DNA of 64,000 bases. It comes from Kiritimatiellia bacterium. Lineage in GTDB: Bacteria > Verrucomicrobiota > Kiritimatiellia > RFP12 > UBA1067. Position numbers and translations under genes: made by a program. The DNA lies in contig JAFTCL010000044.1 in the NCBI GenBank assembly GCA_017454745.1, forward strand, positions 1-64,000, written 5' to 3'. A model generated the notes under the pieces. That model worked only from the letters and a program-made list of their open reading frames with translations. It ran no database searches and was not told the DNA's origin. This document shows, piece after piece, positions 17,460 through 19,796 of this stretch (the first letter of the stretch is position 1; every line of letters begins with the position of its first letter).

Positions 17460-19412
17460 CTATACTCCCCCCATTCGTAACCGCTGCTCTTCCCGGTGGA
17501 TGAGTTCTTCGGTTAGCGCCCCCAGGGCGTTTAAACCGCATTGGTCGGCGACCTCCAGCAATCGGTCCAACGCCGGCGCGATATGGCGGGTAAAGGCGGT
17601 TTGTCCTACCGACGCCAATCTTCCGTATGCGCCCAGCGCTTGAATGAGCCGTTGCACCGCGCCCAGCGCAAGTTCTTCTTCCGTTGGGGCGTTCGGGCCG
17701 GTTTTCGCGTATTCGTCCAACAGTTTCTTGCGGGCGGCTTCGTCAATTTCCACATAAGGGTCGTACAGCAGCGAGGCTAAATCATACACCGCCGGTCCCA
17801 TGCGCATTCCCTGGAAATCGATCATTGCCGGTGTCTTGTGCCGGAACAGGATGTTGCTGGACTGCAAATCCCGGTGTACCACCACTTGAGGCATGGACAT
17901 GAGTTTTTCGGCCACGGCTTCCAGCTCTTTGCGGACATCGGCGGGTAAACCGTCCTCGAACCCGAAACGTTCTTTCAACAGATAGTCTTCAAAAAGCCGG
18001 CGTTCCCATTTGTACAGGGCGCGGTCGAACGGTGGTTCAAGGGCAACGCCGTCGGTCTTGACTTTGTCCGTGACCGGGCCATGCAGTTTGGCAGTAAGCG
18101 CCATAACGGCGGGATACCAATCCAGGGCTTTGCCGGGGTTGCCCAGCATCCGCTGTTGCAGGGAGTCCTCGCCCCAATCCTCAAACGCCTGGCATTGCGA
18201 TTCGGGGATGTCGGCCAGTACCGCCGGTACGGTAACACCGCATTCGGCTAGCAGTCTGGTGTGTCCGGCGTAACGGGTGTTTTCAAAACGATCGGTGGAG
18301 TAGGAGACGGCGATTGCGGTGTTCTCGCCGTGCCAAAGCCGCCAAAACGTGCGGTTGGAGCCGCGGGCGCCCAAACACGACACTGCGGTTTCTCCGGCCC
18401 AACCCAGTTGCTCCAACAGCGGCTTAAGCGCGGGTTCGTTAATGAGCGTGTCCGCCAACGCCAGCTGACCGTTAAGCTGGTTGCTGCGCTTTCCGCCGAC
18501 GGATAACGGGTGTTTGGGATCGTCGGAGCCGACCAGAACCGAGTTCGTGGCCGAGGTGTTTCCCTCTACCCGAATGTTTCCAATCAGTATGCTGTCGGAT
18601 CCTTTAACATCCGGCGCGGCTTTGGCGTTCGGCCCGATGCAGAAAAAGTGCGGCAAATCCAGCGGCAGCCGGTCGGCTTCGGGCGCGTATAGTTCTCCGC
18701 CCGGCAGATTTTTACGGGCGCGCCGTTTGGTCTCTCGGTGCACGTCCAGATAGCTCGCCGGTGTGCCGGTATCCGCCCAATAGCTGCCCTGCACCGCCAC
18801 GCCGCGCATGAACCGGTTGTCATACATCGCGGCCTCAAAGGCCTCGATGATCGTGCAGAAATTTTTCTCCGGCAGGTATTTGAAAATTTCCGGCTTAAGC
18901 AGACTCAATCCGCAGAAGGTATAGTTGCCGTCCACCCCTGGCTCGATGCTGTGGTAGCAGGTGATGCGTCCGGCGTAATCGATTTCCACCGTTCTTGGGC
19001 CGCGGTCGGGTTCCAGCCATACCGCGCCGAGCGAACCGGGCTGGTTTGCCGCTTCGATAAAGGGCTCGGGTTCCACCGAGAAAGCGATATCGGCGTTCAG
19101 CAGCCAGAATTGGTCATTCCCGATTTGACGGCGCAACGGTCGAAGCGCCCCACCGGTGCCCAAAATTTCCTTTTCCTTAGACAGCGTGATTTTCGCTTCG
19201 CCCTTGCGGGACAACAGATAGCGTTCAAGCGCGTCGGCTTTCCAGTGGAGGTTCACCATGATATCTGTCACCCCCCAGCTTTCCAACCGGAGCAGCGCGT
19301 GTTCTATCAGCGGCACGTTCCATAACGGCAACAGCGGTTTGGGGATGGCTTCGGTGAGGGGGCGCAGGCGCGATCCGAATCCGGCGGCGAGCACCAGTGC
19401 TTTCTTTACCAT
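17460..19412 (-). CDS. Fused MurU-type nucleotidyltransferase and AmgK-type anomeric sugar kinase (peptidoglycan recycling)
   Basis: 650 residues joining two enzymes that are separate proteins in Pseudomonas. Residues 1-235 are a sugar-phosphate nucleotidyltransferase: LAAGFGSRLRPLT, KPLLPLWNVPLI, LGTGGALRPL and the metal-binding NADIAF. Residues 330-650 are an aminoglycoside-phosphotransferase-fold kinase: VVHRDLQSSN near 510, IDFQGMRMGP near 530 and YDLASLLYDPY. DFQ plus YDLASLL is the AmgK pattern. AmgK makes MurNAc-1-phosphate from MurNAc and ATP, and MurU makes UDP-MurNAc, bypassing de novo synthesis and fosfomycin action. The middle 235-330 has no domain I recognise. Function is inferred from both halves together; GlcNAc-type substrates remain possible. 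Third gene after rhaB and folB. Confidence 0.85.
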   Translation of the reverse strand: MVKKALVLAAGFGSRLRPLTEAIPKPLLPLWNVPLIEHALLRLESWGVTDIMVNLHWKADALERYLLSRKGEAKITLSKEKEILGTGGALRPLRRQIGNDQFWLLNADIAFSVEPEPFIEAANQPGSLGAVWLEPDRGPRTVEIDYAGRITCYHSIEPGVDGNYTFCGLSLLKPEIFKYLPEKNFCTIIEAFEAAMYDNRFMRGVAVQGSYWADTGTPASYLDVHRETKRRARKNLPGGELYAPEADRLPLDLPHFFCIGPNAKAAPDVKGSDSILIGNIRVEGNTSATNSVLVGSDDPKHPLSVGGKRSNQLNGQLALADTLINEPALKPLLEQLGWAGETAVSCLGARGSNRTFWRLWHGENTAIAVSYSTDRFENTRYAGHTRLLAECGVTVPAVLADIPESQCQAFEDWGEDSLQQRMLGNPGKALDWYPAVMALTAKLHGPVTDKVKTDGVALEPPFDRALYKWERRLFEDYLLKERFGFEDGLPADVRKELEAVAEKLMSMPQVVVHRDLQSSNILFRHKTPAMIDFQGMRMGPAVYDLASLLYDPYVEIDEAARKKLLDEYAKTGPNAPTEEELALGAVQRLIQALGAYGRLASVGQTAFTRHIAPALDRLLEVADQCGLNALGALTEELIHREEQRLRMGGV

Positions 19413-19427
19413 GGCGGAAATCCGTAA

Positions 19428-19796
19428 TTATTGTTTTCGGCGGCGGGTGATTTCCACCGCCGCGTTGCGCAGCCCGACCACGGTACCCGCCTTCTCAATG
19501 CGGACGCGCACCGTTTGGACGAATTCGGATTCGAGGCACGCCGCCGCCACAATGCCGGCGGCGTGCTCGATCATGCGGCAGCGCGCGCTGCGCAGCCGTT
19601 CGCGGATCAGCCCCGCCAACGCCGAGTAATCGATGGTGTCGGCCAGCAGATCGCTCGCCTCCGCCGCCGACAAATCGGCGAAAAGCGCGACATCCACCAG
19701 CAGCACCTGCTCTTGGCATCGTTCTTCCGGAAGGTCCCCGATAATGCAGGAGACGCTTAACCCGTTTAACTGGAGCTGATCCAACTCTTCGTTCAT
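19428..19796 (-). CDS. folB: Dihydroneopterin aldolase
   Basis: 122 residues, normal for FolB. It shows the family marks: IIGDLPEERCQEQ near the N-terminus (EExxxQ), DTIDYSALAGLIRE in the middle and MIEHAAGIVA with the conserved Glu that binds the pterin. The enzyme splits dihydroneopterin to 6-hydroxymethyl-dihydropterin and glycolaldehyde in folate synthesis. It forms an octameric tunnel-fold ring in the cytoplasm. It starts 8 nt after rhaB and ends 15 nt before the MurU/AmgK fusion, so the three are most likely one transcript, though their pathways differ. No other folate gene is in the window. Confidence 0.9.
   Translation of the reverse strand: MNEELDQLQLNGLSVSCIIGDLPEERCQEQVLLVDVALFADLSAAEASDLLADTIDYSALAGLIRERLRSARCRMIEHAAGIVAAACLESEFVQTVRVRIEKAGTVVGLRNAAVEITRRRKQ

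What the first reader, a model, noticed from the sequence alone, without database searches (positions are those of the whole stretch)
17460..19412. MurU and AmgK joined in one 650-residue protein
Seen: an N-terminal nucleotidyltransferase with LAAGFGSRLRP and NADIAF, and a C-terminal kinase with HRDLQSSN, IDFQ and YDLASLLYDP. Known: AmgK phosphorylates MurNAc at C1 and MurU then makes UDP-MurNAc. Inferred: the two successive steps are fused, with the nucleotidyltransferase first in the chain though second in the pathway. The middle region (235-330) may be a linker or a third domain.
Basis: partly seen in the sequence, partly recalled or inferred. Interest (0 to 1): 0.6.

Follow-up and report, generated by a model that had tools for sequence, protein, structure and literature searches.

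The report
Fused MurU-AmgK cell-wall salvage enzyme
This bacterium from the Kiritimatiellia group carries, in one protein, both enzymes that turn the cell-wall sugar MurNAc back into a wall precursor; the fusion is conserved across its group and sits in a recycling route that seems to start with a MurNAc-releasing enzyme inside the cell instead of the textbook entry step.

Summary
Window 17460-19412 (minus) is one 650-codon ORF with a MurU-type nucleotidyltransferase (1-232), a short left-handed beta-helix tail (about 233-325) and an AmgK-type kinase (326-650). Substrate is inferred, not assayed. The genome has no separate murU or amgK. The 'middle region' is the nucleotidyltransferase's own tail, eroded to 13-31 residues in some fusions. 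The fusion is conserved across the class; elsewhere in the phylum the genes are unlinked, adjacent (murU first, often in frame with one stop between) or fused, so domain order follows gene order. New: none of 91 relatives has AnmK, and no AmpG passed its cut-off in 31; instead the fusion co-occurs with NamZ, an exo-muramidase that frees MurNAc (87 of 96 fusion genomes in the class). NamZ lies directly upstream in about 16 genomes and in one contig is fused to it (NamZ-MurU-AmgK, 1052 aa). Most NamZ genes examined lack room for a signal peptide. Best reading: an AnmK-independent MurNAc salvage module, a new variant of a known pathway.

The parts
17460..19412 (-). MurU-AmgK fusion gene, 650 codons plus stop
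   Evidence: ORF; Pfam, NCBIfam; AlphaFold2 model pLDDT 95, pTM 0.90
18717..19412 (-). residues 1-232: MurU-type nucleotidyltransferase (GxGxR loop 11-15, PKPLL 24-28, presumed metal Asp108 and Asp214)
   Evidence: NCBIfam MurU best model 108.6 bits; TM-score 0.86 to P. putida MurU 4y7t by target length; tree split 100/99; residues invariant in 35 fusions
18438..18716 (-). residues 233-325: short left-handed beta-helix tail of the nucleotidyltransferase
   Evidence: strands at 257-320 in the model; Foldseek aligns about 350 residues with GDP-mannose pyrophosphorylases that carry such a helix; similar tail on stand-alone Verrucomicrobiota enzymes
17463..18437 (-). residues 326-650: AmgK-type kinase, HRD...N 513-520 and DFQ 532-534
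   Evidence: NCBIfam AmgK best kinase model; plasmid tblastn finds AmgK homologues beside MurU-like genes; PDB 3csv is the only significant solved relative
19428..19796 (-). folB (dihydroneopterin aldolase), 15 bp upstream, probably co-transcribed; conserved neighbour in part of the lineage
   Evidence: PF02152; directly upstream in 15 related loci

Best explanation
A bifunctional MurNAc-salvage enzyme: the C-terminal AmgK-type kinase phosphorylates free MurNAc (possibly GlcNAc too) at C1 with ATP, and the N-terminal MurU-type domain joins MurNAc-1-phosphate to UTP, giving UDP-MurNAc and bypassing MurA/MurB. The beta-helix between them is a dispensable structural tail of the nucleotidyltransferase. 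In this lineage free MurNAc most likely comes from NamZ, an exo-beta-N-acetylmuramidase that mostly lacks a signal peptide here and so probably acts in the cytoplasm on MurNAc-GlcNAc fragments; the usual entry by AmpG and AnmK is missing. Shown: the fusion, homology of both halves, intact catalytic residues, conservation, NamZ linkage, absence of AnmK and of AmpG over its cut-off. Inferred: substrate, location of NamZ, and any substrate hand-over between the active sites.
For: Family, fold and tree placement of both halves; the closest stand-alone homologues in other phyla are next to each other, e.g. amgK-murU in Xanthomonas, tsaE-amgK plus murU in Rhizobium, amgK-rapZ plus murU in Parabacteroides; no separate copies in the genome; full conservation of catalytic residues. 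Pathway: NamZ in own genome (C19:29617-30222) and in 87 of 96 fusion-bearing genomes of the class, against 2 NamZ genomes without the fusion; Fisher p=1.8e-8 in 91 relatives, 0.005 without family f4; NamZ directly upstream in about 16 genomes; NamZ_N-NamZ_C-NTP_transferase-APH in one 1052-aa ORF in L108; only 4 codons before the NamZ domain in the own genome. AnmK 0 of 91 relatives, AmpG over cut-off 0 of 31. A MurK-like BadF-type kinase beside murQ in the own genome also implies free cytoplasmic MurNAc.
Against: No assay. Scores are far below the curated equivalog cut-offs (108.6 vs 250; 52 vs 550), though no control genome passes the MurU one either. The nucleotide loop reads LGTGGA in most class fusions, as in GTP-using HddC/GMPP enzymes, where MurU has L(E/D/N)(T/S)GGG. 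MurA is present, so the route is not the only source of UDP-MurNAc. Nine fusion genomes of the class show no NamZ, and co-occurrence is partly shared ancestry. NamZ location is inferred from sequence alone.
Confidence: 0.78

Rival explanations
1. The same architecture makes a different nucleotide sugar: an AmgK-like 1-kinase acting on another (amino)sugar and a guanylyl- or uridylyltransferase of GMPP/HddC type.
For: LGTGGA loop and beta-helix tail resemble GDP-mannose pyrophosphorylase and HddC; the longest Foldseek matches are GMPPs.
Against: Tree puts the domain with MurU, 100/99, against GMPP, HddC-like, RmlA and archaeal enzymes; NCBIfam MurU beats ManC and HddC models; MurU too has the Glu of that loop; the beta-helix is also on stand-alone Verrucomicrobiota MurU-like enzymes with LETGGG; NamZ linkage points to MurNAc.
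Confidence: 0.15
2. The kinase mainly serves GlcNAc, feeding GlcNAc-1-phosphate to GlmU, and the MurU half is a minor or regulatory activity.
For: AmgK family enzymes are named MurNAc/GlcNAc kinases (NCBIfam names); NamZ cleavage would release GlcNAc as well.
Against: Catalytic residues of the MurU half are invariant in 35 fusions; the genome already has two NahK-like 1-kinases.
Confidence: 0.1
3. LicCA-like choline kinase/cytidylyltransferase fusion.
For: Known bacterial architecture of cytidylyltransferase plus APH-type kinase (own knowledge); CTP:phosphocholine cytidylyltransferase 1jyk is a weak PDB hit.
Against: Only 59 residues match 1jyk; no choline kinase family hit; trees and context point to MurU and AmgK.
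Confidence: 0.02

Closest known systems
AmgK and MurU of Pseudomonas, Caulobacter and Tannerella (MurNAc salvage)
   Same: Same two enzyme families, same predicted consecutive reactions, conserved catalytic residues; genes adjacent in many phyla
   Different: One polypeptide with MurU first; extra beta-helix; below the NCBIfam cut-offs; AnmK and a clear AmpG missing; NamZ linked or fused
NamZ (GH171 by own knowledge; Pfam PF07075/PF20732)
   Same: Both Pfam domains over cut-off in homologues next to or fused with the enzyme
   Different: Described NamZ are extracellular or periplasmic (PMC13204101, PMC10465942); most here have no room for a signal peptide
MurB/MurC fusion of Verrucomicrobium spinosum (PMC4803751)
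   Same: Fusion of two consecutive cell-wall precursor enzymes, restricted to Verrucomicrobia lineages
   Different: De novo pathway, different enzymes
TsaE-AmgK (alphaproteobacteria) and AmgK-RapZ (Bacteroidota) ORFs
   Same: AmgK-type kinase fused to another domain
   Different: Partner there is not MurU; murU is a separate neighbouring gene

Membership tests
MurU (N-acetylmuramate-alpha-1-phosphate uridylyltransferase) | Sugar-nucleotidyltransferase fold with GxGxR loop and two metal-binding Asp | tested here: met
   Pfam PF00483, model and Foldseek to 4y7t/8hhd, residues invariant
MurU (N-acetylmuramate-alpha-1-phosphate uridylyltransferase) | Groups with characterised MurU, apart from other sugar classes | tested here: met
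   Split 100/99 from nine other nucleotidyltransferases; 11 MurU references incl. 8hhd and 4y7t on the same side; only a limited sample of other classes
MurU (N-acetylmuramate-alpha-1-phosphate uridylyltransferase) | Curated NCBIfam equivalog cut-off NF045761 (250 bits) | tested here: not met
   108.6 bits. No control genome passes this cut-off, including Caulobacter vibrioides, although the MurU route was verified in C. crescentus (PMC13046382), so it is a narrow test
MurU (N-acetylmuramate-alpha-1-phosphate uridylyltransferase) | L(E/D/N)(T/S)GGG nucleotide loop | tested here: not met
   LGTGGA in this protein; LDTGGA in the NamZ triple fusion. Derived by me from the reference alignment, not a published criterion
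MurU (N-acetylmuramate-alpha-1-phosphate uridylyltransferase) | UTP + MurNAc-1-P activity | not testable with these tools
   needs enzyme assay
AmgK (MurNAc/GlcNAc anomeric kinase) | APH fold with HRDxxSxN, DFQ, YDxASLL and QRxxQxLGAY-like segments | tested here: met
   the DFQ and QR...LG segments are shared with AmgK references and not with the NahK-like kinases
AmgK (MurNAc/GlcNAc anomeric kinase) | Groups with AmgK, not with aminoglycoside, choline or NahK kinases | tested here: inconclusive
   Groups with AmgK references but outgroup branches are very long and no aminoglycoside or choline kinase was in the tree; annotated plasmid hits lie beside MurU-like genes; no aminoglycoside or choline family competes over its cut-off
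AmgK (MurNAc/GlcNAc anomeric kinase) | Curated NCBIfam cut-off NF045759 (550 bits) | tested here: not met
   52 bits, still the best kinase model
Pseudomonas-type MurNAc recycling pathway | AnmK and AmpG supply the route | tested here: not met
   AnmK 0 of 91 relatives; 11 of 388 in the phylum, none of them among the MurU/AmgK-positive genomes; AmpG over cut-off 0 of 31
Pseudomonas-type MurNAc recycling pathway | MupP phosphatase | not tested
   no specific model was searched
NamZ exo-muramidase (partner gene) | NamZ_N and NamZ_C domains | tested here: met
   for L085, L098, L123 and L108; NamZ_N for the own genome

The most novel reading that the evidence does not exclude
Kiritimatiellia use an AnmK- and AmpG-independent MurNAc salvage line in which a cytoplasmic (unexported) NamZ splits imported MurNAc-GlcNAc and passes MurNAc to a fused AmgK-MurU that makes UDP-MurNAc, in one lineage as a single three-enzyme polypeptide.
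Probability: 0.5. Interest if true: 0.65.

Novelty: new variant of a known kind. Interest (0 to 1): 0.5.

Why it matters
It joins the two steps that let bacteria bypass fosfomycin-sensitive UDP-MurNAc synthesis, gives a Rosetta-stone link between NamZ and AmgK/MurU, and shows within one phylum the series unlinked, adjacent, in-frame adjacent, fused, triple-fused. It predicts that many uncultured gut and sediment bacteria salvage MurNAc without AnmK, and offers a single-chain enzyme for making UDP-MurNAc or for MurNAc-probe labelling.

Tried and rejected
A PDB search of the middle region alone failed through a frame slip in my coordinates; the model and Foldseek covered it instead. The 59.8-bit second MurU-model hit (C46) is an RmlA-type enzyme, not a second MurU. 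The other APH hits are two NahK-like kinases, one unassigned APH-like protein and protein-kinase-like hits. A first Pfam batch failed on wrong coordinates. A search for the L108 linker repeat with a DNA pattern I guessed from the protein found nothing; the tandem-repeat finder did. The JBC MurU structure paper was not held, so residue roles rest on alignment. Papers naming the MurU-AmgK fusion were sought and none found in the held library; subscription papers are mostly absent, so priority is not proven. The LicCA idea was rejected. Conserved antisense ORFs over the gene were taken as shadows of a GC-rich conserved gene.

Full report
What is there. The minus strand of 17460-19412 holds one uninterrupted ATG-to-stop ORF of 650 codons. 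Pfam gives NTP_transferase at 4-229 and APH at 352-571, both over cut-off. Among NCBIfam models the best for the first half is MurU (108.6 bits, ahead of archaeal GlmU-like 86.7, mannose-1-P guanylyltransferase 83.0, HddC 70.2) and the best for the second half is AmgK (52.0 bits, ahead of all other kinase models); both lie far below the curated equivalog cut-offs. Those cut-offs are narrow: none of 14 control genomes passes the MurU one, Caulobacter vibrioides included, although the MurU pathway has been verified in C. crescentus (PMC13046382).

Identity of the halves. A maximum-likelihood tree of 51 nucleotidyltransferases separates GMPP, HddC-like, RmlA, GalU-like and archaeal enzymes from a group made of characterised MurU (8hhd, 4y7t), annotated or amgK-adjacent MurU genes, Verrucomicrobiota stand-alone enzymes and the fusions, with support 100/99. 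The kinase tree groups the fusions with Verrucomicrobiota kinases and AmgK references; outgroup branches are very long, so I lean on other evidence: a tblastn of the kinase half against 72,556 plasmid records returns just 15 records, and in those I inspected with annotation the hit is beside a MurU-like gene (Sphingomonas, Rhizobium, Parabacteroides, Legionella, Xanthomonas with murU annotated, Bacteroides). Catalytic residues of both domains are invariant in 35 fusions at 36-55% identity: R15, K25, D108, D214; H513, R514, D515, N520, D532.

The middle region. AlphaFold2 on an alignment of 35 fusions gives pLDDT 95.1 and pTM 0.90. Foldseek aligns about 350 residues to GDP-mannose pyrophosphorylases, which carry a left-handed beta-helix after the catalytic domain (own knowledge of that family), while the catalytic domain alone fits MurU best (TM-score 0.83-0.86 by target length) and the kinase fits 3csv (0.73). 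Stand-alone Verrucomicrobiota enzymes mostly carry hexapeptide-repeat tails of 75-101 residues after the W-x-D-x-G motif, proteobacterial MurU only 12-19; in fusions the segment ranges from 13-31 residues in some gut lineages to about 100-114 in most. So the middle is the nucleotidyltransferase's own tail, shortened in some lineages. MurU of P. putida is called a 'minimal' nucleotidyltransferase in the title of its structure paper (cited in PMC6981941).

Distribution and origin of the fusion. The own genome has no other MurU or AmgK. Full-length fusions occur throughout the class (named relatives are mostly Kiritimatiellae MAGs). In other families of the phylum the genes are unlinked (three near-complete genomes of one genus), adjacent with the nucleotidyltransferase first, adjacent and in frame with a single stop between (seven named loci), or fused. 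Domain order thus follows gene order, not pathway order, and one lost stop codon would make the fusion.

Pathway context, the main new point. AnmK, which starts the Pseudomonas-type route from anhydro-MurNAc, is absent from all 91 relatives and present in only 11 of 388 phylum genomes, none of them among the MurU/AmgK-positive ones. No AmpG passes its cut-off in 31 relatives. Yet NamZ, the exo-muramidase family that releases free MurNAc, is present in the own genome and co-occurs with the fusion: 59 both, 9 fusion only, 5 NamZ only, 18 neither among 91 relatives (Fisher p 1.8e-8; 0.005 with the double-negative family f4 left out), and 87 of 96 fusion genomes in the class sample. These tests ignore shared ancestry, but double absences recur in several families (f1, f3, f4, f5, f6, f7, f8 and f11). 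NamZ lies directly upstream of the fusion in about 16 genomes and in L108 one 1052-codon ORF reads NamZ_N-NamZ_C-NTP_transferase-APH; the junction contains a 96-bp (32-codon) tandem repeat, so this single metagenome case should be confirmed. In the own genome only 4 codons separate the conserved start of NamZ from an upstream stop, and 8-19 in many others, leaving no room for a signal peptide; a few have longer upstream frames. The own genome also carries murQ beside a BadF-type kinase resembling the T. forsythia murK-murQ arrangement (PMC10465942), which again implies free MurNAc in the cytoplasm. MurA is present, so salvage supplements de novo synthesis.

Limits. Substrate is inferred. In most class fusions the nucleotide loop reads LGTGGA as in HddC/GMPP, where MurU has L-E/D/N-T/S-GGG; the base-contacting Glu reported for HddC (PMC6981941) is also present in MurU, so the loop does not settle UTP versus GTP. 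MupP was not searched. Literature in the held library describes AmgK and MurU only as separate proteins; most subscription papers are not held.

Verdict. It is a new variant of MurNAc salvage, made more interesting by its link to NamZ.

Noticed in passing
window 19428-19796 (-): folB lies 15 bp upstream of the fusion and the same pair recurs in 15 related loci; no functional link between folate and MurNAc salvage is evident.
   Followed up: partly
L108:4271-7426: Single 1052-aa ORF NamZ-MurU-AmgK with a 96-bp tandem repeat at the NamZ/MurU junction.
   Followed up: yes
L190:482-2301 (own genome C42): murQ next to a BadF/BadG-type kinase (MurK-like): a catabolic MurNAc route beside the anabolic fusion.
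   Followed up: partly
L004 and L006 (own genome C26, C76): Two NahK-like sugar 1-kinases, paralogous to each other, substrates unknown.
   Followed up: no
L119:1046-1852 and seven other loci: Conserved 269-aa protein without Pfam match directly upstream of the fusion in eight genomes.
   Followed up: no
L112, L115, L120, L124, L130, L131, L135: MurU and AmgK genes in one frame separated by a single stop codon, a plausible pre-fusion state.
   Followed up: partly
AmgK ORFs in L145 (Rhizobium) and L146/L188 (Bacteroidales): AmgK fused to TsaE and to RapZ respectively; annotation names only the partner domain, hiding the kinase.
   Followed up: no
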